Positions 5,901-15,127 of a stretch of DNA of 64,000 bases are shown here, piece by piece. The notes under the pieces are model-generated. The model was given only the letters and a program-made list of their open reading frames with translations. It did not search any database and was not told the DNA's origin. Position numbers and translations under genes: made by a program. The stretch covers positions 434,001 to 498,000 of the forward strand of contig NZ_FCNV02000002.1 of NCBI RefSeq assembly GCF_001544615.1, in the 5' to 3' direction. The DNA comes from Caballeronia concitans (lineage in GTDB: Bacteria > Pseudomonadota > Gammaproteobacteria > Burkholderiales > Burkholderiaceae). Positions within the stretch are counted from its first letter, which is position 1; each line of letters opens with the position of its first letter.

Positions 5901-6239
5901 ATGAATCACGCAGACGTTTATCGCGGTCAATGCCTCTGCGGCGCAGTGCTTTTCACGTTGAACGGAGAGCCTGCCGGCATCGGCTATGACCGGCGCGAAT
6001 GCCCCGTCAACGCATTCGGACTATGGAAGCAGCAAGCGCTGCACATCGTGCGCGGCGCGAATGACATCGGCGCTTACAACACCTCGCCGCATGGCTCGCG
6101 TCATTGGTGCAAATGGTGCGGCGGCTATCTGTACACGGAGCATCCGAGGCTCGGACTCGTCGATGTCCACGCGTCCATCCTCGAATGCTTCGCGCATGAA
6201 GGCATGAACGATCTTCGCATCAGCCATCGTTCTTCTTGA
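5901..6239 (+). CDS. GFA-fold (CENP-V/GFA) zinc-binding protein
   Basis: A 112-aa protein with YRGQCLCGAVLFTL near the N-terminus and HWCKWCGGYLY later. These are the paired cysteine sites of the glutathione-dependent formaldehyde-activating (GFA) fold. The middle zinc cysteine cluster (usually CSxCR) is replaced by RRECPVN, so catalytic zinc binding may be altered and activity as a glutathione adduct enzyme is doubtful. It is transcribed away from the AraC regulator, which probably controls it. Confidence 0.75.
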   Translation: MNHADVYRGQCLCGAVLFTLNGEPAGIGYDRRECPVNAFGLWKQQALHIVRGANDIGAYNTSPHGSRHWCKWCGGYLYTEHPRLGLVDVHASILECFAHEGMNDLRISHRSS

Positions 6240-6350
6240 CTCATTCGCGATGAGCCCGTTCGCCGCGCGGGCCGTTCGCATCGCAGTGTCGCGGCGCCCA
6301 TGAACGTGCACCGTTGCCGTTCGCTCAACGTCCGCTATCAGGAGTGTGTC

Positions 6351-7184
6351 ATGTCCGCTGTCGATTCCGCCCTCTCGCCCGCCATCGATCTCGCCGCCGT
6401 CAAGGTCCGCCAGCAAGCCGCCTGGTCGACGGGCAACTACGCCGTCGTCGGCACGACGTTGCAGATCGTCGGTGAAAGCCTTTGCGAAGCGCTCGATCTG
6501 CGCGCGGGCAGCCGCGTGCTCGATGTCGCAGCGGGCAACGGCAACGCGACACTCGCCGCCGCGCGCCGCTGGTGCGATGTGACATCCACCGACTACGTGC
6601 CCTCGCTGCTCGACGCGGGACGCGCACGCGCCGACGCCGAAGGTCTCGCCGTGCAGTTCCAGGAAGCGGACGCCGAAGCGCTGCCGTTCGCGGATGCATC
6701 GTTCGACGTGGTGCTCTCCACCTTCGGCGTCATGTTCACGCCCAATCAGCAGCAAGCCGCCGACGAACTCGCGCGCGTTTGCAAGCGCGGCGGCAAGATC
6801 GGCCTCGCGAACTGGACGCCCGAGAGTTTCATCGGCCAGGTGTTCAGGACGATAGGCAAATACATGCCGCCCGCGCCGGGCATGATGTCGCCCGCACTGT
6901 GGGGCACGAAGGCGCGGATCGAGGAACTGTTCGGCGATCGCGCGAGCAGCATCGCCGCGATGCGCCGCGAGTTCGTGTTCCGCTATCGTTCGGCCGCGCA
7001 TTTCATGGACGTTTTTCGCACCTACTACGGGCCGATGAACAAGGCATTCGCCGCGCTCGAAGGCGAGCGCCAGGCCGCTTTCATCGACGACCTGATGACG
7101 TTGATCGAGAGCCGCAACCGGTCGGGCGACGCGACGCTCGTGCTGCCGAGCGAGTACCTCGAAATCGTCGTGGAGCGATCGTGA
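6351..7184 (+). CDS. Class I SAM-dependent methyltransferase
   Basis: A 277-aa methyltransferase. Motif I is VLDVAAGNGNATLAAA, with an acidic residue at the end of strand 2 (TSTDYVPSLLDAGRARA). The DAEALPFADASFDVVLSTFG segment is the usual post-II/motif IV region of UbiE-type enzymes. The C-terminal half is a helical cap likely to set substrate choice, which I cannot infer. The start at 6351 follows a clear AGGAGTG ribosome site; an in-frame ATG at 6300 lacks one. Confidence 0.85.
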   Translation: MSAVDSALSPAIDLAAVKVRQQAAWSTGNYAVVGTTLQIVGESLCEALDLRAGSRVLDVAAGNGNATLAAARRWCDVTSTDYVPSLLDAGRARADAEGLAVQFQEADAEALPFADASFDVVLSTFGVMFTPNQQQAADELARVCKRGGKIGLANWTPESFIGQVFRTIGKYMPPAPGMMSPALWGTKARIEELFGDRASSIAAMRREFVFRYRSAAHFMDVFRTYYGPMNKAFAALEGERQAAFIDDLMTLIESRNRSGDATLVLPSEYLEIVVERS

Positions 7185-7872
7185 ACACGCTCCAACGCCT
7201 GGTCGCGACCTACCCCGACTGCGCGCTTCGCCTGTGGTCGTCGGCTTGCCTGTTTCGCCTTCGATACGGTTCGGGTTTGCTCGCGCTGCCGCTGTGCTCG
7301 TCGGTATGTTTCTTCGGCTTGCGCCTCGTTCTCTCGGCGGTGGGCGTTTCGGTTTAGCGCGTTGATTCATTGATAAACGGGCTTCGCTAAGTTCGCGTGC
7401 AACGCGAAGCCCGGCAAAAAAAGACCTTCTCGAAATGCGACTCTATTCATCATTTAATCAGATTAAATGATTATTATCGTATCAATTAAGGAAATAATTG
7501 CTAATGGGGATCGGTAATGTATGCGCATTACGGTCATAAATCACCGAGGGATTACCCGGCATAGCCGTCGAGCGCAACCGCCAAAATTTTTTTTTCATTC
7601 ATTTGTCTGTCCAGACACGCAGTAATTGCCGCGCAAACGTTGACCGTTACATACCGTTACGGGTTTTTTCATACGGTAAGAAGTGGTGAGCGTTTAACAT
7701 GCTCTTCGTTCGGCCGGTAAAACCGACTGACACACGCGTCCATCAATCAGCGGCGCATTGGCTGATTCGCCTTTCCTCTCCCTGCGGTTTAAATCGTGGG
7801 TCCCACTCAACCGGGCACTCGGGGAAACCTTTTTTCGGCGATCAGGAACGGCAGACGTTTATTCAATTCCCA
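7185..7872. other. Long non-coding region with AT-rich dyads upstream of a lipoprotein gene
   Basis: No convincing gene. It contains a perfect 10-bp inverted repeat (CGGGCTTCGC at 7378-7387, GCGAAGCCCG at 7404-7413). There is an AT-rich palindrome ATCATTTAAT-CAG-ATTAAATGAT (7449-7471) and a smaller dyad CAATTA-N7-TAATTG beside it. A T9 tract lies near 7590, and two ACCGTTAC copies lie near 7640-7660. The AT content contrasts strongly with the surrounding DNA. It probably holds the promoter and regulatory sites of the gene at 7873. Confidence 0.6.
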
Positions 7873-9219
7873 ATGAAGAAAAAACATTTCATCGTTTACT
7901 CGGCTTTCGCAAGTTCCTTAATCCTCTCCGCATGCGGCGGCGGCGCAGACAACGCCCCGTCCAGCGTCAACAACAGTGCGACCGATCCCGCCGCGGTGGC
8001 CAATGCCGCCACGAAGCCGCCGTCGGCAAACGGCACGACGATTCCGTCCGGCACGTCGATCGTCGATTCCTCCGGCGCGACCTGGACCGTGACCAACGGC
8101 GTGATCTATCGCGCGGGTCAGAAGGCTGGTTTCTCGGCCTCCGTCACGCTGTTGCTGTGGTACGGCGGCAAGATCTATCAGCAGAACGTGAACAAGCTGT
8201 GGTGGGTGTGGGCGAACAACACGTGGGCCGTCTCGAGCGATCCGCGCTCGACGACCGCCGCTGCCTCGACCTCGAAGCCCATTCCGTTCTTCGGCGTCAA
8301 CGCGCATTACATCCAGGGCGGCGTCTATTCGTCGATCCCGCTCGCCACGCAGTCGGCGTCGATGGTTGACCTCGGCCTCACGAACGTGCGTCAGGACGTG
8401 TACAGCAACGCGCAGATCGACATCCTCGCGAACCAGGTCATGCCTAACGTCGGCACGAAGGTCAACGTGATGCCGCTCGTCATTCCGCATCCGTGGATGG
8501 ACCCGTCGCTGAACGGCCGCACTCCGACTGAACAGTCGGCGTACACCTACGCCTACAACATGGCGGCGTATGCGGCGACGAAGTTCAAGGGCGTGCCGGT
8601 CGTGGAATTCGGTAACGAATACGATATCGACAACCACAACCGCCCGGTCGCGAACGACGGCGTGAACGTCTCCGACTACGACAACACCACGTGGCCGATC
8701 TGGCGCGGCACGATGCGCGGCTCGTACGACGGCTGGCGCTCGGTCGACAAGACCGGCCAGACGAAGATCATCAACACGGCATCGACCGGCTTCCTCTATC
8801 TCGGCTGGTACAAGGGCATGCTGACGGGCACGCAGCCGGACGGCTCGACGGGTCACCCCAAGGTGCAGACGGACATCATCCAGTTGCACTGGTACTCGGA
8901 CGGTCTCGATCCCGAGAACACGTGGGGCAAGGACGGCACGAACTACAACGTGCTCAAGATCTTGCACGACGCGTATAACCTGCCGATCATGTTCACGGAA
9001 ATCGGCATCAACGCGGACTACACGACGTCCATGGCGCAGGCGTATATCGCGAAGACGATTCCGGAGCTCTATGCGGCCCGCAGCACGTATAACGTGATCG
9101 GCTTCAACTGGTACGAGCTTTACGATGATCCTAGCGGAACGTACGGTATCCTGACGAATGGCGGCGGAACGAAGCCTGTCTATTCGGCGATCAAGTCGGC
9201 AGTGGCGGCATCGCACTAA
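7873..9219 (+). CDS. Secreted glycoside-hydrolase-like lipoprotein
   Basis: A 448-aa lipoprotein: basic start MKKKHF, hydrophobic helix, and lipobox LILSACGGG. After a Ser/Ala/Pro linker comes a repeat-like module (SIVDSSGATWTVTNGVIYR ... LLLWYGGKIYQQN ... WWVWANNTWAVSSDP) seen in other Burkholderia-type surface proteins. The C-terminal domain, from FFGVNAHYIQGG, looks like a TIM-barrel glycosidase core. GNEYD is the likely acid/base glutamate site and MFTEIGI the likely nucleophile strand. I infer a polysaccharide-active enzyme on the outer membrane or exported; the substrate is unknown. A strong terminator follows it. Confidence 0.7.
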   Translation: MKKKHFIVYSAFASSLILSACGGGADNAPSSVNNSATDPAAVANAATKPPSANGTTIPSGTSIVDSSGATWTVTNGVIYRAGQKAGFSASVTLLLWYGGKIYQQNVNKLWWVWANNTWAVSSDPRSTTAAASTSKPIPFFGVNAHYIQGGVYSSIPLATQSASMVDLGLTNVRQDVYSNAQIDILANQVMPNVGTKVNVMPLVIPHPWMDPSLNGRTPTEQSAYTYAYNMAAYAATKFKGVPVVEFGNEYDIDNHNRPVANDGVNVSDYDNTTWPIWRGTMRGSYDGWRSVDKTGQTKIINTASTGFLYLGWYKGMLTGTQPDGSTGHPKVQTDIIQLHWYSDGLDPENTWGKDGTNYNVLKILHDAYNLPIMFTEIGINADYTTSMAQAYIAKTIPELYAARSTYNVIGFNWYELYDDPSGTYGILTNGGGTKPVYSAIKSAVAASH

Positions 9220-9281: not shown

Positions 9282-9822
9282 AATGACCGTGAGACACGGT
9301 GCAATCCGTCGGCAGCTTGCCGAGGACATTGATCGCTGCGGGCAGCATTGCGCTCGAGTGCCGACGTTGCTGAGGGCAGCACGACCGCGAACACCTTGCC
9401 GAACAACGCACGGCTCGCCCGCAATACGCTGCTATGCGCAGCCGACCGAAAGCTAAGCGTTGCGCACTCCCGCGCGGGATGAGCTGATGAAAGAACCGCA
9501 CCACCACGAACAACGCACCGCAGCAACCGGCTCAGCAGTATCCCGGTGGCCAGCCCGCCGATGACGCACATAAACAGCGTGACGAGAACGAACGGCAGCG
9601 CGACAAGCGACAACGCGATTGCGACCCTGCCGCCGATGCTGATGCGGACCTGAAGCAGGCCGATCCCGACAGCAACGACGAGGGCTGAGGCTCAGGCATT
9701 CATGCATTACCTGACACTGCGCCAATGCAACGCCTGCACAACAATTCTTTACGTTTAGGACTCGCAATATCTTGTCGTATCCTTTAGCTTTACACGCTCG
9801 TCATCAGCAGACGGAGACAACC
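9282..9822. other. Region without a supported gene; possible membrane-protein remnant on the minus strand
   Basis: The minus strand between about 9700 and 9470 encodes about 70 mostly hydrophobic residues (ALVVAVGIGLLQVRIS ... LVALPFVLVTLFMCVIGGLA), enough for two membrane helices. There is no ATG or GTG start and no ribosome site, and composition after the helices becomes random. It may be a decayed gene. The last about 80 bases probably hold the promoter of the PAAR cassette. Confidence 0.4.
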
Positions 9823-10230
9823 GTGAAAGAAGCCGGAACGACGCATCTCCTTGCGACCATAGGTTCCGGGACCCAGCGCGGCGGACGGGTAGACCGCGCA
9901 ACGCTCGGGCGGCGAATAAAGGGGTTCCGCATCGCCTTGGTCGGTGACGTAGTCGCCTATGCAGACGGCAGCGAGGCGGTCATAGCGAACGGCGTCGGGT
10001 ACGGATTAACCGATCACCTGACGCCATACGTTCTAGTGGGAAGCCGCCTAAGCAACGGCCATTGCATCACCCGATCACTGCCCGGTGAAAGCTTTTATGT
10101 CGGCAGCCAGCTTGATAACGGTGACGTCATCACGGACAGCCCCGAGCGCGAAGGCGTCACATGTTCGGATATGTTCACCATCCTGAGAGGCGGTTCACTC
10201 ATTGAACAAGAGGGCATTATTCGATGCTAA
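9823..10230 (+). CDS. PAAR-like domain protein (first of tandem pair)
   Basis: A 135-aa protein beginning at GTG with an ACGGAGA ribosome site; a TTG 17 codons upstream lacks one. Motifs LLATIGSGTQRGGRV, IALVGDVVAYADGSEAVI, and the repeated YVLVGSRLSNGHCI / FYVGSQLDNGDVIT units are those of Burkholderia PAAR-like proteins. PAAR proteins cap the VgrG spike of the type VI secretion system and carry effectors. Its stop overlaps the next gene start (ATGCTAA at 10224-10230). The region is markedly lower in GC than the flanks. Confidence 0.75.
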   Translation: MKEAGTTHLLATIGSGTQRGGRVDRATLGRRIKGFRIALVGDVVAYADGSEAVIANGVGYGLTDHLTPYVLVGSRLSNGHCITRSLPGESFYVGSQLDNGDVITDSPEREGVTCSDMFTILRGGSLIEQEGIIRC

Positions 10231-10757
10231 GACGCGCCTTTCTCGCTAAAGGTGACCGTGCTGACAGCGCCATTATCACAGAGGGACTGCCAACAGTTAC
10301 CTGCTCGAACCCGCCACCGCTCGTTCACATAGCAACGCTCGAAATGCGCACTTACTGCGATGCTTGCAAGCGCGATGGCTACATCGCGCCTCGCGGGCCT
10401 CGCCATCCGGAGACGGGGCCGAATGGCAAGCAATGGGCGCTTAGCGGTGACATCAACATATGCGGCTGTAGTCCCGCTCCGGTGTTCCGTGCCGAGCGCA
10501 ACATGGGAATGTCTTTCACTTCCGGCGATGCAACTTATGTTGATGAATGGAAAAGTGAGCGAACCCGTTCGACCACGGGACGCTATGACGAACAGATCGT
10601 ATTGCGCGACGAAGATGGTCATGCGGTCGCAGGACAGCGGTACATGATTACGACAGACGATGGGGAGATCTATCAAGGTGTCACGGATTCCACCGGCGCA
10701 ACGGAGCGCGTCTATACGGATCATCCGATGAAGCTCGTAATCGAACTGTTGGTTTAA
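10224..10757 (+). CDS. PAAR domain protein with C-terminal extension
   Basis: A 177-aa protein. The N-terminal PAAR part has RRAFLAKGDRADSAII, a CDACKRDG cysteine pair, and NICGCSPAPVF followed by NMGMSFTSGDA. These are signatures of the cysteine-containing PAAR subtype common in Burkholderia. The C-terminal 55 residues (DEQIVLRDEDGHAVAGQRY ... TDSTGATERVYTD) look like the transthyretin/Ig-like extension often fused to PAAR. That extension may dock the effector encoded just downstream. It is translationally coupled to the first PAAR gene, with a two-base gap to the effector gene. Confidence 0.8.
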   Translation: MLRRAFLAKGDRADSAIITEGLPTVTCSNPPPLVHIATLEMRTYCDACKRDGYIAPRGPRHPETGPNGKQWALSGDINICGCSPAPVFRAERNMGMSFTSGDATYVDEWKSERTRSTTGRYDEQIVLRDEDGHAVAGQRYMITTDDGEIYQGVTDSTGATERVYTDHPMKLVIELLV

Positions 10758-10759
10758 CT

Positions 10760-11548
10760 ATGACCGATTCATACGTTCAGTTTCTGAGAAACCACCGCGC
10801 ACAAACGAACGATAATCAAGGCAGCACGCATAGCGCGACTGTCGAAACCCGTTACGTAAAGATGCCATCGGACCAGCAACGTTGGCTGCATGTGAAGCGT
10901 GAAAAGAACGGGCAACTTATTGCTCTCTGCGAGAACACGCAGGTGACAATGATTCGGTCATCGGATGGGTACACTTACTTCAAAGTGGCTGATGGTACGA
11001 GCGATTATGTCGGTGAGACAGTATGCATATCTGATGGCAACGTTGACCGATTCTTATCGAAGACGCCCCCGAGCCGGTCGTCAGTGACCTTGAGCGTCAA
11101 GTATGGAAAACGCGCTCATGGCATTTCCGCCCCTCGTGGCAACGAAGATTTAGACCAGCAATGGGGCAGCTTGACGATCCCCGGTGGGAAGACGATGACT
11201 GTCACGCTCAATAGTGTCTGGAACGGTCGTTACAGCCCGATTCCAGCGGGTATTCATCGCATCATGGCTCCCGACGCCCCTCACGATTCGTCTTATACCA
11301 AGTTCTATGTTGACTACGCGAAGCAACATGGGATGGGTAATGTCATCGCAGATCAAGTTTGGTTCCCGATCGAACTAGCCGGGTCAAGAGGAAACTCTAC
11401 CCGATACGTTCACATTGGCAATCTCTCAGAGGGCTGCGTGACGGTGTATGCGCTTGAGCATTGGAACGACGTTTATAACTTTCTCATTTCACATCGGTTG
11501 CCAGATACACGAGGGCGATATGTGGCGAACCTTGAGGTCACCAAGTGA
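10760..11548 (+). CDS. Putative type VI secretion effector, L,D-transpeptidase-like
   Basis: A 262-aa protein without a signal peptide. The last about 100 residues have PAGIHRIMAPDAPH and RYVHIGNLSEGCVTVYALE. The latter resembles the His...Ser-x-Gly-Cys catalytic segment of YkuD/L,D-transpeptidases, with H218 and C226 as candidate catalytic residues. Related folds serve as peptidoglycan-targeting type VI effectors (Tlde families). The spacing between His and Cys is shorter than in classical YkuD enzymes, so this is a divergent member or a different cysteine hydrolase. The context (PAAR upstream, exported small protein overlapping downstream) strongly favours an effector role. The first about 100 residues match nothing I know and may be the carrier-binding part. 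Confidence 0.65.
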   Translation: MTDSYVQFLRNHRAQTNDNQGSTHSATVETRYVKMPSDQQRWLHVKREKNGQLIALCENTQVTMIRSSDGYTYFKVADGTSDYVGETVCISDGNVDRFLSKTPPSRSSVTLSVKYGKRAHGISAPRGNEDLDQQWGSLTIPGGKTMTVTLNSVWNGRYSPIPAGIHRIMAPDAPHDSSYTKFYVDYAKQHGMGNVIADQVWFPIELAGSRGNSTRYVHIGNLSEGCVTVYALEHWNDVYNFLISHRLPDTRGRYVANLEVTK

Positions 11549-12066
11549 GACGGTTCCTTGTTGCGTTGTTGTCCTGCGGCCTGATGGCTGTGTTGGCGGA
11601 CGGTAGGTCGGAAACGCTCAACTCGTCCAAACCTGCTAGCGAGCCAACCTCGTCGCTTGCGTGCGGTCACTTCTGTGGTCAAAAAGCTCAGCCGCCGATT
11701 GCATGCGGCGACTATCTGAAAGAGCTAGGCCGTAGTCGCCGCGAGGTCGAGTATCTTGGATGTGAAGCGACAATGCTAGACGGGCCACCAATACCCGGCT
11801 TTAAAGCCACATACCGAGTTAGAGGATCAGACCTCGACAAGATAGATAAGTGGCTCGCAACCTGGACAGAATGGAAGCGCCTGCGATTCTCCTGCTGTCA
11901 ATGGGATGCACCGACTGGTTTTTACAGAGACAAGAGCGGCTCGGACTATTACATCGACATGGGAGCCGATGCGTATGTGAACGGTCATATGATCGACCGG
12001 CGAAAGGATTTTTCAAAACTGCCGTATGCAACCTTGAGGATCTCACACTATCTTTATTTGCCGTAG
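11545..12066 (+). CDS. Putative periplasmic immunity protein (DUF4952-like)
   Basis: A 173-aa protein starting at GTG, overlapping the effector stop (GTGA). It has an export signal (MRRFLVALLSCGLMAVLADG) and a mature domain rich in cysteine: CGDYLKELG, EVEYLGCEA, YRVRGSDLDKIDKWLA, LRFSCCQWD. This matches my memory of DUF4952 proteins, which have the same CCxW core. A periplasmic location is what an immunity protein against a cell-wall-targeting effector needs. The pairing with the upstream gene is inferred from overlap and topology. Confidence 0.65.
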   Translation: MRRFLVALLSCGLMAVLADGRSETLNSSKPASEPTSSLACGHFCGQKAQPPIACGDYLKELGRSRREVEYLGCEATMLDGPPIPGFKATYRVRGSDLDKIDKWLATWTEWKRLRFSCCQWDAPTGFYRDKSGSDYYIDMGADAYVNGHMIDRRKDFSKLPYATLRISHYLYLP

Positions 12067-12227: not shown

Positions 12228-13829
12228 TCAAGCGATCAGCGCTTCGACCAACTCGTTGAGTGGCACAGGCTTCACGAAGTGACGCTCGAATCCGGCGTCA
12301 GACGAACGTCGGCGGTCTTCGGCCTGACCATATCCCGTCAATGCGAAAAGGCGCAGCGCATCGCCCTCTTGCTGCAACCGCAGCGCCGCGGCCAACTGAT
12401 AGCCGTCCATTCCGGGCAAGCCGATGTCGAGCACGGCGAACGCCGGACGAAACTCCGCCGCGACTTCGAGCGCCGCTTGCGGCGCGCTCGCCGTTGCCAC
12501 GTCGAACCCGACTTCCACGAGAAATGCTTCCATCGAGAGAAGGCCGTCTTCGTTGTCGTCGACGAGCAATACGCGGATACCGTTTCCTTCGGGAAGCGAT
12601 CGCGCGGTCAGTAACGCGTCGGCGGGCATCAGCGTGTGCGGTGCGATCGGCAGCGTCACCACGAACGTCGATCCCTTTCCCGGTCCGTCGCTCATCGCCG
12701 TGACGGTGCCGCCGTGCAGTTGGACCAGATTCTTCACCAGCGCAAGGCCGATGCCCAGTCCGCCCTTCGCACGGTCGATGGTGGTTCGCCCCTGCTCGAA
12801 GATGGTGAAGAGCCGGGGCATCAGATCCTCGCCGATACCCGCGCCGTTATCCGACACCGAAACGACGATCTCCGTCGCGTTCGTCACCGCTTCCACGCGG
12901 ATATGTCCACCCGCATCGGTGTATTTGGCTGCGTTGTTGAGCAGATTGCCGAAGACTTGCGTGAGCCGCGTGAGATCTGCCGAGATGAGCGCGCCGTCGT
13001 CGGTCACGCTGAGCGACAAGGTTTGTCCGCGCTGCTCGACCAGCGGACTCGCGGCCTCGATGGCGCGCGTCAGCACCGAACCAATCCGCACCGCTTCGAG
13101 ATGAAGTTCGATGGACCCGCGCGTGATGCGGCTCACGTCGAGCAGGTCCTCGACGAGCCGCGACAGATGCGACACCTGCCGCTCGATGATCTCGTGATAC
13201 TTGTCCGGCGTCCCGCCGCGATGCTTGCGCATGAGCCCGAGCGCGGTCGTGATCGGCGCGAGCGGATTGCGAAGCTCATGCCCGAGCATCGCGAGGAATT
13301 CGTCCTTGGCGCGGCTGGCCGTCTCGCGTTCGTGCGCGGCGCGCGCCGCCTGCAGACCCGTTGCCGCCAGCGAGGTCGCCGCGCGCAGAAACGCGAGGTC
13401 CGTCACGGACGGAAACGACGGGTCGGCCGAACCGAACCAGACGCTGCCCTGACCCGCGGTGTATCCCATGCTCATGCGCACCATTCTCTGCGCGCCGGCC
13501 GGCGTCGCCTGAAGCACGGGACGCGGGCCGATGGGCATGCGGCGCCATGCGTCGATCGCCGGCTCCCATGCGAGACGAACGTCCGCGGTGGCATCGGCTT
13601 CGCGCAGACGCAGCGTGTCGAATGCGGACGAATCGGGGAGCAAGGGCACATATGCATAGCAGACATCCAGACGGACGATCCGCTCGACGGCCTGCGTCAT
13701 CAGTTCGATCACCGTCCGGCCATCGCGCCCGGCCCACAACGCCGGCAGCGCCAGAAGGCCCATCAGGTCACGCAGGCTGCGCTCGGCTGCTTCCCGCGAC
13801 AGCGCCTCGGAGCCAGACTCAGCGGCCAT
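12228..13829 (-). CDS. Hybrid sensor histidine kinase (GAF-like, HisKA, HATPase, receiver)
   Basis: About 533 aa from the ATG at 13829. Order: a GAF-like sensor region (first about 180 residues), HisKA with the phospho-acceptor GHELRNPLAP, HATPase boxes (NLLNNAAKYTD, DNGAGIG, GLGIGLALVKNL), and a C-terminal receiver (VLLVDDNEDG, phospho-Asp in VLDIGLPGMDG, KPVP). No membrane helix, so it senses a cytoplasmic cue. It overlaps the 3' end of the MEDS gene upstream by 11 bases. An ATG 13 codons earlier (13868) is possible, with a larger overlap. The pair is likely one signalling unit. Confidence 0.88.
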   Translation of the reverse strand: MAAESGSEALSREAAERSLRDLMGLLALPALWAGRDGRTVIELMTQAVERIVRLDVCYAYVPLLPDSSAFDTLRLREADATADVRLAWEPAIDAWRRMPIGPRPVLQATPAGAQRMVRMSMGYTAGQGSVWFGSADPSFPSVTDLAFLRAATSLAATGLQAARAAHERETASRAKDEFLAMLGHELRNPLAPITTALGLMRKHRGGTPDKYHEIIERQVSHLSRLVEDLLDVSRITRGSIELHLEAVRIGSVLTRAIEAASPLVEQRGQTLSLSVTDDGALISADLTRLTQVFGNLLNNAAKYTDAGGHIRVEAVTNATEIVVSVSDNGAGIGEDLMPRLFTIFEQGRTTIDRAKGGLGIGLALVKNLVQLHGGTVTAMSDGPGKGSTFVVTLPIAPHTLMPADALLTARSLPEGNGIRVLLVDDNEDGLLSMEAFLVEVGFDVATASAPQAALEVAAEFRPAFAVLDIGLPGMDGYQLAAALRLQQEGDALRLFALTGYGQAEDRRRSSDAGFERHFVKPVPLNELVEALIA

Positions 13830-14499
13830 TCTCTTGAACGAATGCGGCCGGCTTGCTCGCCGCTTCATCGCCCGGAGCGACTTCCGATGACCGACGGCGC
13901 TTCAGTTCCTGAACCATCTCGGACGGCTGCGTGAAGAACGGATTCTCCTGCACGACACCGTTGATGAGCGTCATCGGATGCGTGCGCAGCAGGTCCATCA
14001 GCATCGAGCCGGAGAGCTTCGCGATGTCGTACACGCAGACGGCAGGCTGCCGGTTGCGCTCGAGCACTTCGTTCACTTCGGCTTCGTATTCGATGAGCTT
14101 CGGCGTGGCTGTCGTGTCCTCGAACACCCAGTCCATGTTGCCCATGATCCGCAGGCGCGAAAAGCCCGCATCGCGGCCGCTTCCCGTCAATCGCTCGACG
14201 GCGGCAAGCATCCGGTCCTTGTCGAACACGCCTTCTTCATCCAGATACGCGTCGCGCCACGAAACGAGTTCGAGCTGACCGCACGCCTCGCAGTGCGCGG
14301 CATCGATGCCCGAAGCCGTCAGCCGCGCGCGATGATCCGCCAGCAACGCGGGATTCACGATGTGCATGTTCTTTTCGCCGTTATCCACCGCCTCCTTGAA
14401 GAAGGGACTCAACGTTGCGTACTCTTCGTCGCGGCTATTGAAGAATGCGCAGACGTGATAGGCCTCGAGCGGGGTGCCGGCCAGTGTGGGCGGGTGCAT
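13819..14499 (-). CDS. MEDS-domain sensory protein
   Basis: A 226-aa protein of the MEDS (DcmR-like) family, related to the nucleotide-binding RecA-like sensors of methylotrophs. Conserved parts are HVCAFFNSRDEEYATLSPFFKEA, EKNMHIVNP and RLRIMGNMDWVFE, then EYEAEVNEVLER and QPAVCVYDIAKLSG. I chose the MHPPTLAG start at 14499 because homologous sequence begins there; the longer open frame upstream is not family-like. It probably passes a signal to the overlapping hybrid kinase. Confidence 0.85.
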   Translation of the reverse strand: MHPPTLAGTPLEAYHVCAFFNSRDEEYATLSPFFKEAVDNGEKNMHIVNPALLADHRARLTASGIDAAHCEACGQLELVSWRDAYLDEEGVFDKDRMLAAVERLTGSGRDAGFSRLRIMGNMDWVFEDTTATPKLIEYEAEVNEVLERNRQPAVCVYDIAKLSGSMLMDLLRTHPMTLINGVVQENPFFTQPSEMVQELKRRRSSEVAPGDEAASKPAAFVQENGR

Positions 14500-14686
14500 G
14501 GAATAGTTTCTTTGGAGAGGAGAGGGAGGGGGTCGGCGGCAATGATACGCTAAGCGCCGCGAGCCGTTCTGTGCGAACGCGCTTCCATCTCGCGGCTTCG
14601 GGCGTATCGATTGCTCATACCTGTCACGAAAGCAGGACCTCAATCGGCGCGGCCCTTGTCGCGCTTGCGTCCAGAAGAAGGCAAGC

Positions 14687-15127
14687 ATGACCGAAGACAA
14701 CGCGTTCGCCGTCCCTCCGAAATGCGCGATATGGACGAGCAGACGGCAGGCCGTGGAAACACCTCGTGTGCTTGTCGTCGATGACTATGTCGATACCGCC
14801 GATGCAATCGGCATGGTCCTCGCGATCGAAGACTTTCCGACACGCGTGGTCTATGGCGGCCACGAAGCGATCGAGGCGGCAAGACAATGGCATCCGGACA
14901 TCGTGATGCTCGATATCTGGATGCCTGATGTCTCCGGCATCGAAGTTGCGATACGCCTGCGTGCCGATCCGGTCACATCGAACGCGATCCTCGTTGCGCA
15001 TTCGGCGGTATCGAGCACGGAAGACGTGAACGCAGTGAGGCTCGCGCACTTCGACGCATACTGCTCGAAACCTACCGATCCTTCCATGCTGGGCCCGCTG
15101 CTCCGATATCTTTGCCGCGGCGCCTGA
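14687..15127 (+). CDS. Single-domain response regulator
   Basis: A 146-aa receiver-only protein. Acidic pocket VLVVDDYVD, phospho-acceptor D76 in DIVMLDIWMPDVSG, conserved Ser/Thr strand VAHSAVSS and lysine loop YCSKPTD. It has no output domain, so it probably relays phosphate or binds a partner. It is divergent from the MEDS/kinase pair and a natural candidate partner of that kinase. An AAGAAGG ribosome site precedes the start. Confidence 0.88.
   Translation: MTEDNAFAVPPKCAIWTSRRQAVETPRVLVVDDYVDTADAIGMVLAIEDFPTRVVYGGHEAIEAARQWHPDIVMLDIWMPDVSGIEVAIRLRADPVTSNAILVAHSAVSSTEDVNAVRLAHFDAYCSKPTDPSMLGPLLRYLCRGA

What the first reader, a model, noticed from the sequence alone, without database searches (positions are those of the whole stretch)
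9823..12066. PAAR / PAAR / L,D-transpeptidase-like effector / DUF4952-like immunity cassette
Four tightly packed genes overlap or nearly touch (ATGCTAA, two-base gap, GTGA). Tandem PAAR-like proteins precede a protein with an H...SEGC motif and an exported cysteine-rich small protein. Two 60-base lines inside (10801, 10921) count to 48-50% GC; a flank line (13081) counts to 63%. Type VI effectors that cut or modify peptidoglycan need a periplasmic immunity protein, which is what the last gene looks like. No VgrG or structural type VI gene is adjacent, so this would be an orphan mobile effector module.
Basis: partly seen in the sequence, partly recalled or inferred. Interest (0 to 1): 0.78.

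Follow-up and report, generated by a model that had tools for sequence, protein, structure and literature searches.

The report
Cell-wall toxin cassette with mosaic immunity
A four-gene cassette in a probable Caballeronia bacterium most likely carries a cell-wall-attacking weapon, two needle-tip proteins to deliver it, and an exported antidote, and the weapon and antidote appear to descend from different versions of the cassette.

Summary
In detail: four packed genes, 9823-12066, the lowest-GC stretch of the window. It is best read as a type VI secretion (T6SS) effector-immunity cassette. (1) Two PAAR-type proteins; the second ends in a TTR domain whose profile matches the solved TTR domains of VgrG2b and EAEC VgrG1. 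(2) A 262-aa effector with no significant match of its own, whose family is a remote relative of the Tlde1 LD-transpeptidase-fold toxins (hhalign 94%, score 51.4 against at most 26.5 in 200 shuffles). (3) An export-type DUF4952 protein. Of 36 related loci, 34 have one of three mutually unrelated gene families within 1.2 kb downstream (DUF4952 16, two unnamed 6 and 12), each confined to one effector clade (31 labelled rows); all 36 genomes have a T6SS sheath gene against 51 of 274 in a class sample. Extra finding: the window's effector groups with one clade, its immunity and PAARs with another, so the cassette looks mosaic. Against: Glu224 replaces a histidine that Tlde1a needs; 10 of 34 loci lack an upstream TTR. 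Fold, activity and neutralisation are untested. New variant of a known kind.

The parts
9823..10230 (+). PAAR1: PAAR-type spike-tip protein, 135 aa (GTG start; TTG 9772 possible)
   Evidence: PF05488 E 5.5e-4, 20.5 bits, under the cut-off of 27; homologue L021:1078-1767 passes at 42.1 bits; iterated profile links them at E 2.6e-85
10224..10757 (+). PAAR2-TTR: PAAR-type protein with C-terminal TTR domain, 177 aa; start overlaps the stop of PAAR1
   Evidence: PF05488 17 bits, under the cut-off; homologues in the same position in L024, L036, L040 pass, L020:2405-2995 has no match
10581..10754 (+). TTR-type domain, probable effector loader (last 58 residues of PAAR2)
   Evidence: profile of 18 copies matches solved VgrG2b (6h56, E 1.1e-11) and EAEC VgrG1 (6sjl, E 1.9e-10); found within 2 kb upstream of 24 of 36 related effectors, 34 of which have upstream DNA to search
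10760..11548 (+). Tlde1-like effector, 262 aa, no hydrophobic N-terminus
   Evidence: family alignment A2; hhalign against local Tlde1_dom alignment 94.2%, E 1.2e-7, shuffle control; 18 of 33 members, not the window protein, weakly match PF10908; N-terminus
11237..11251 (+). PIPAG, residues 160-164, counterpart of the GPIPxGxY strand of Tlde1_dom
   Evidence: the part of A2 up to residue 214 alone matches Tlde1_dom at 67%, E 5e-5
11411..11437 (+). predicted active site: His218 (11411-11413), S223-E-G-C226 (Cys codon 11435-11437)
   Evidence: invariant columns of A2 (32 of its 33 rows come from a search pre-filtered on this motif); same spacing in relatives found without the filter
11545..12066 (+). 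DUF4952 immunity protein, 173 aa, export-type N-terminus; start overlaps the effector stop (GTGA)
   Evidence: PF16310 E 1.6e-8, 35.1 bits, cut-off 25; same family downstream of 16 of 36 related effectors; hydrophobic N-terminus
11686..11904 (+). DUF4952 domain proper (residues 48-120)

Best explanation
The cassette is a self-contained T6SS effector-immunity module with its own spike tips. PAAR2, capped on VgrG, holds the effector through its C-terminal TTR domain, and the spike carries it into the periplasm of a neighbouring cell. There the effector works as an LD-transpeptidase-fold enzyme of the Tlde1 kind: Cys226, helped by His218, attacks the peptide stem of peptidoglycan, trimming the terminal D-Ala and/or exchanging it, so the wall weakens. 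The DUF4952 protein is exported to the producer's own periplasm and blocks the enzyme. Shown here: gene order, homology, TTR match, T6SS genes in the genome, tight coupling of effector clade and immunity family. Inferred: loading, periplasmic action, chemistry, neutralisation.
For: Effector family against Tlde1_dom members from the same genus and order: probability 94.2%, E 1.2e-7; score 51.4 against a maximum of 26.5 in 200 column shuffles, and the two parts match separately. 18 of 33 members hit PF10908 at E <= 1, best 1.4e-4. TTR profile hits VgrG TTR structures; a paper states that the EAEC VgrG1 TTR domain is involved in delivery of its effector Tle1 (PMC7376260, passages). The same TTR domain precedes the effector on PAAR proteins or on VgrG itself (L018, L037, L045, L046). 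One of three families within 1.2 kb downstream in 34 of 36 loci, never two, each on one side of a starred branch of the effector tree (2 changes among 31 labelled rows; shuffled mean 13.3). Hydrophobic N-terminus: 27 of 28 immunity proteins tested score 2.3 or more (one 1.6), 32 of 33 effectors 1.2 or less (one 1.7). T6SS sheath gene in 36 of 36 genomes against 51 of 274.
Against: The window effector has no significant Pfam, NCBIfam or PADLOC match of its own, its family found no relevant solved structure by sequence, and it matches a YkuD alignment only at 4.7%. No structure model could be made. The SHGC histidine of Tlde1a, whose change abolished toxicity (PMC9638812, section 11 part 1), is Glu224 here. 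10 of 34 loci with upstream DNA have no TTR domain within 2 kb and no hit of the PAAR1 or PAAR2 profile; the Gemmatirosa plasmid relative shows no such gene by eye. The 36-locus sample was pre-filtered by the motif pattern, so motif conservation in it is built in. The sheath-gene comparison is not corrected for kinship or genome size, and the two sets differ in lineage.
Confidence: 0.8

Rival explanations
1. It is a T6SS effector-immunity pair, but the enzyme is not an LD-carboxypeptidase/transpeptidase: the fold has been reused for another cysteine chemistry (for example endopeptidase or amidase) on the wall or another periplasmic target.
For: Compact H-x4-S-[ED]-G-C (H to C 8 residues) against 10-12 in the 18 Tlde1_dom rows (the script printed 15 for one row, L079, because it caught an earlier His; 11 by eye); Glu or Asp where Tlde1a has His129; very weak match to YkuD.
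Against: Two separate segments match Tlde1_dom in order; several Tlde1_dom members also have SEGC or SDGC, so the acidic residue does not by itself mean other chemistry.
Confidence: 0.15
2. The cassette is a decaying or mismatched remnant: effector and immunity come from different clades, so the present pair may not be functional.
For: Clade conflict; G185 carries a decayed second immunity copy, G243 an orphan DUF4952 behind a 26-aa effector scrap, G982 a broken effector, so decay occurs in this family.
Against: All four window frames are open, with motifs and overlaps kept.
Confidence: 0.1
3. A housekeeping LD-transpeptidase-like wall enzyme with an accessory protein, not a weapon.
For: Distant LD-transpeptidase kinship.
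Against: No hydrophobic N-terminus on the effector; tandem PAAR-type genes and TTR; patchy occurrence, 9 of 299 genomes; T6SS sheath gene in 36 of 36 genomes; three unrelated downstream families.
Confidence: 0.04

Closest known systems
Tlde1a/Tldi1a of Salmonella Typhimurium (Tlde1_dom, PF10908)
   Same: Remote sequence kinship in two segments to the Tlde1_dom family; PIPxG strand, catalytic His, S-x-G-C; T6SS setting; immunity gene beside the effector
   Different: PF10908 does not find the window protein; extra N-terminal part; H to C 8 instead of 10-12 residues; Glu224 for His129; two PAAR-type genes in the operon; immunity gene downstream (Tldi1 lies upstream, passage in PMC10434147) and of another family (DUF4952, or two unnamed ones in relatives)
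EAEC VgrG1 with TTR (PDB 6sjl, 6sk0) and P. aeruginosa VgrG2b TTR (6h56)
   Same: TTR domain matched by profile; sits on a spike protein encoded next to the effector gene
   Different: Here the TTR is on a PAAR-type protein and the cargo is Tlde1-like, not a lipase; in four relatives it is on VgrG
DUF2778 protein in a T6SS cluster of Paraburkholderia sabiae (PMC10434147, passages)
   Same: Tlde1-type candidate effector in a related genus
   Different: A DUF2778 gene downstream of tssL, no Tldi1 immunity gene found by its authors; ours is outside PF10908 and has an export-type partner
V. cholerae effector displacement and immunity arrays (PMC5361080, abstract, start of the introduction and section headings)
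   Same: Recombination and retained old immunity genes
   Different: Here one cassette joins an effector of one clade to immunity and PAARs of another; only one relative (G185) was seen with a second, decayed immunity copy

Membership tests
Tlde1 effector family (PF10908) | Match over the curated score | tested here: not met
   Window protein: no PF10908 hit at E <= 1; 18 of the 33 members of A2 hit at E <= 1, best 1.4e-4; scores not shown by that call
Tlde1 effector family (PF10908) | Remote homology by profile comparison | tested here: met
   94.2%, E 1.2e-7; above all 200 shuffles
Tlde1 effector family (PF10908) | Canonical LD-transpeptidase motif H-x14-17-(S/T)HGC | tested here: not met
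   H-x4-S-E-G-C in the window; motif as given in PMC9638812 section 4. Members found by PF10908 deviate too
Tlde1 effector family (PF10908) | LD-transpeptidase fold | not testable with these tools
   structure prediction switched off
Tlde1 effector family (PF10908) | LD-carboxypeptidase and D-amino-acid exchange activity, periplasmic toxicity | not testable with these tools
   needs bench work
T6SS antibacterial effector-immunity module | T6SS in the genome | tested here: met
   TssC/VipB matches at C12:756120 and C9:86974, four Hcp, one VgrG by PF13296; other T6SS genes not searched; sheath gene in 36 of 36 relatives' genomes
T6SS antibacterial effector-immunity module | Linked spike protein | tested here: met
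   two PAAR-type genes directly upstream, TTR domain; in relatives 24 of 34 with upstream DNA
T6SS antibacterial effector-immunity module | Adjacent exported immunity gene, effector without signal peptide | tested here: met
   (hydropathy of the first 40 residues only, start codons taken mechanically, no signal-peptide predictor)
T6SS antibacterial effector-immunity module | Neutralisation and T6SS-dependent killing | not testable with these tools
   needs bench work
PAAR (PF05488) | Match over the curated score | tested here: inconclusive
   Window proteins 20.5 and 17 bits, cut-off 27; of five PAAR-type homologues scanned four pass (42.1, 51.9, 80.2, 69.1 bits), one has no match
DUF4952 (PF16310) | Match over the curated score | tested here: met
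   35.1 bits, cut-off 25
TTR domain of VgrG | Sequence match to solved TTR domains | tested here: met
   6h56 E 1.1e-11, 6sjl E 1.9e-10

The most novel reading that the evidence does not exclude
This is an undescribed branch of LD-transpeptidase-fold T6SS toxins with a compact active site, whose three clades have each taken up a different, unrelated periplasmic immunity family (DUF4952 being one, a name that no paper of the searched library holds). In the window cassette the toxin core has been exchanged between clades while the immunity gene stayed, so either DUF4952 proteins neutralise across clades or they bind a part of the toxin that both clades share.
Probability: 0.45. Interest if true: 0.68.

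Novelty: new variant of a known kind. Interest (0 to 1): 0.52.

Why it matters
It gives DUF4952 a testable function (periplasmic immunity to a Tlde1-like toxin), points to two further unnamed immunity families, and shows a TTR domain as the constant adaptor that moves between PAAR and VgrG while toxin clade and immunity change. The clade conflict between the window's toxin and antidote makes a direct test possible of how immunity specificity survives recombination.

Tried and rejected
Direct YkuD membership: no PF03734 match in the window effector; in the own genome PF03734 finds one hit elsewhere, under its cut-off; the profile comparison with a YkuD alignment gave 4.7%: rejected as the nearest family. 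Glycoside hydrolase 97 match (E 0.11): taken as chance. Weak scattered hits of single family members (Big_3_5 in 4 of 33, SH3_9 in 1; EntA wall-binding in 2 of 33, best E 0.036): not used. Solved structures for the effector profile (eL22, saratin, E >= 0.3) and for the immunity protein (E >= 1.1): taken as chance. TTR domain against Pfam: only weak hits, mostly general beta-sandwich families, Big_1 in 7 of 18, best 5.1e-4. Phage or plasmid carriage: no phage match, one plasmid match, Gemmatirosa, 37.8%. Empty site: the kinase next door (12228-13868) is 86% identical in G185, but past its end G185, G301 and G305 show no similarity to the cassette side of the window, so no clean insertion border was found. 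Kinship among the three immunity families was sought and not found. Pfam on nine downstream proteins named only DUF4952, in 3 of 9; the rest had nothing or chance-level hits.
Full report
What is there. GC is 54.3% against a mean of 62.6% (sd 2.4) for 309 windows of equal length; the one lower window overlaps the cassette, and none of 286 non-overlapping windows is as low. The genome is grouped with same-genus genomes whose contigs have the lengths and positions of Caballeronia records (for example L006 and L017), so it is most likely a Caballeronia; the window's own name was not given. Neighbours: a weak glycosyl-hydrolase-type match under its cut-off (7699-9219), a hybrid histidine kinase (12228-13868) and a MEDS-domain gene. 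No T6SS gene is adjacent; the genome has two sheath matches, four Hcp, one VgrG by PF13296 and one PAAR over the cut-off elsewhere.

The delivery genes. Both PAAR matches are under Pfam's cut-off; of five PAAR-type homologues scanned from relatives four pass and one has no match. The last 58 residues of PAAR2 form a domain that recurs directly upstream of this effector family. A profile of 18 copies, chosen by hand from 26 (window and 25 hits), finds the TTR domains of P. aeruginosa VgrG2b (6h56, E 1.1e-11) and EAEC VgrG1 (6sjl/6sk0, E 1.9e-10); the next hit has E 0.33. In L018, L037, L045 and L046 the domain sits at the end of VgrG instead of PAAR (L046 is cut by the contig start, L045 by the frame). 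That the VgrG1 TTR domain is involved in delivering Tle1 is from passages of PMC7376260. So the TTR domain is the likely loader of this effector; this step is inference.

The effector. It has no convincing match in Pfam, NCBIfam or PADLOC. Relatives were found in 9 of 299 genomes of the family, own included, at 36 loci in genome contigs, in 2 of 399 genomes of the order, own included, and on a Gemmatirosa plasmid. At least four loci are the same contigs. The 36-locus search used the pattern H[IV]G[NH][LV]S[ED]GC as a first filter, so conservation of that motif among them is built in; the same spacing is nevertheless seen in relatives found without the filter: L011-L013, Gemmatirosa HPGHVSEGC and G982 HTGQVSAGC. 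Alignment A2 holds the window and 32 of the 36 loci; the partial L027, L041, L050 and L051 were left out. I fetched Tlde1_dom members (12 of 41 genomes have one, not the own) and YkuD members, aligned 18 of 18 and 11 of 14 stretches, and compared profiles: Tlde1_dom 94.2%, E 1.2e-7 over 85 columns, YkuD 4.7%, Tlde1_dom against YkuD 87%. Controls: column shuffles of Tlde1_dom scored at most 26.5 in 200 against 51.4, the reversed alignment 11.5, and the parts before and from residue 215 match on their own (67% and 92%). Of 33 members scanned singly, 18 hit PF10908 at E <= 1, best 1.4e-4. The distance from His to Cys is 8 residues in 33 of 33 rows of A2, against 10 to 12 in the 18 Tlde1_dom rows (the printed 15 for L079 comes from an earlier His caught by the pattern).

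What it would do. In Tlde1a, Cys131, His121 and His129 are conserved in the active-site cleft, and the enzyme trims tetrapeptides and exchanges the terminal D-Ala (PMC9638812: abstract and start of the introduction, sections 4 and 5, part 1 of 2 of section 11 read). His218 and Cys226 would take the roles of His121 and Cys131. The His129 place is Glu224; in Tlde1a, H129A kept exchange, lost much of the crosslinking and part of the carboxypeptidase activity, and was not toxic, so the acidic residue must do the same job differently or the substrate differs. This is the weakest link in the chemistry.

The immunity gene. DUF4952 passes its cut-off. Profiles of the 1.2 kb downstream sort 36 loci into DUF4952 (16), family B of about 200 aa (6), family C of about 130 aa with two longer members (12) and none (2: L028, and L038 with 209 bases of downstream DNA). 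The three families show no kinship (probability at most 3.3%). On the effector tree each is one side of a starred branch; two changes suffice for 31 labelled of 33 rows, against 13.3 in shuffles. Of 35 such proteins (34 and the window's) 28 were tested for a hydrophobic N-terminus: 27 score 2.3 to 3.8 and one (L042) 1.6; of 33 effectors 32 score 1.2 or less and one (L032) 1.7, so the ranges overlap by one of each. TTR domains lie upstream in 24 of 36; L050 and L051 have almost no upstream DNA, and 10 (L028-L035, L041, L052) have none within 2 kb and no hit of the PAAR1 or PAAR2 profiles: those effectors must reach the T6SS another way or not at all. In 299 genomes, DUF4952 relatives of the window protein occur in 7: the own one and the five same-genus genomes that also carry the effector, and G243, which has an orphan copy behind a 26-aa effector scrap, besides an effector elsewhere followed by a gene that looks like family C by eye. 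G141 and G150 have an effector followed by a gene like family B by eye.

T6SS linkage. The sheath family PF05943 is found in 36 of 36 genomes of the loci and in 51 of 274 genomes drawn from the class, own included. The sets differ in lineage and genome size and are not corrected for kinship, but the contrast is large.

The mosaic. The effector is 59-67% identical to L017, L007 and L018 and 47-52% to L019, L020, L021 and L025; the immunity protein is 34-36% to the first three and 52-60% to the other four. Within the 36 loci the PAAR1 profile hits only beside L019, L020, L021 and L025, and PAAR2 is like the middle PAAR of L021 and L025. Trees of 15 rows each agree; forcing the effector to the second group is rejected (AU p 8.3e-13), and forcing the immunity to the first too (p 9e-4); the branch that joins the window immunity to the second group has support 94/100, just short of starred, and one far row (L026) is long. 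The groups were named after seeing the identities, so these p-values are indicative. The first 25 effector residues are closest to L019 (19 of 25; others 10 to 16), which suggests a crossover near the start of the gene, with a C-terminal end shared by both groups. G185, with a clade I pair, keeps a decayed second immunity copy of the clade II type directly behind it; no other locus of the 38 searched shows a second copy. Two histories fit: exchange of the toxin core inside a clade II cassette, or loss of a clade I immunity gene from a tandem. Vibrio cholerae strains are described as replacing effectors while retaining old immunity genes, with frequent recombination (PMC5361080, abstract).

Print. 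No paper of the library holds 'DUF4952'. Searches on T6SS with transpeptidase or Tlde1 (25 of 164 papers listed), YkuD (2 of 2), LD-transpeptidase (16 of 16), LD-carboxypeptidase (8 of 8) and DUF2778 (1 of 1) showed, in titles and abstract starts, no description of this branch; two papers were checked by passages. The Cell Reports 2020 Tlde paper is not held and could include it.

Verdict. Fold, enzymatic activity and protection remain untested.

Noticed in passing
L126 (G185:C2) 9670-9876: Decayed second DUF4952 copy of the other clade directly behind an intact pair
   Followed up: partly
L014 (G243:C2): Orphan DUF4952 gene preceded by only the last 26 residues of an effector
   Followed up: partly
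L130/L131 (G982:C104): Broken effector relative (split over two frames) with HTGQVSAGC, followed by an open frame that looks exported by eye
   Followed up: partly
L128 (Gemmatirosa kalamazoonensis plasmid 2) 6001-6711: Effector relative outside Proteobacteria, 37.8% identical; by eye no PAAR, VgrG or clear immunity gene among the + strand frames beside it
   Followed up: partly
window 12228-14700: Histidine kinase and MEDS gene region with similar DNA in G185, G301 and G305, where the sequence past the kinase end differs
   Followed up: partly
L020, L021, L025 upstream of the effector: Two successive PAAR-TTR genes beside a further PAAR gene: the TTR-bearing PAAR seems duplicated in this group; the window has one
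   Followed up: no
window 6021-7370: 449-aa open frame on the - strand without a Pfam match at 1e-5
   Followed up: no
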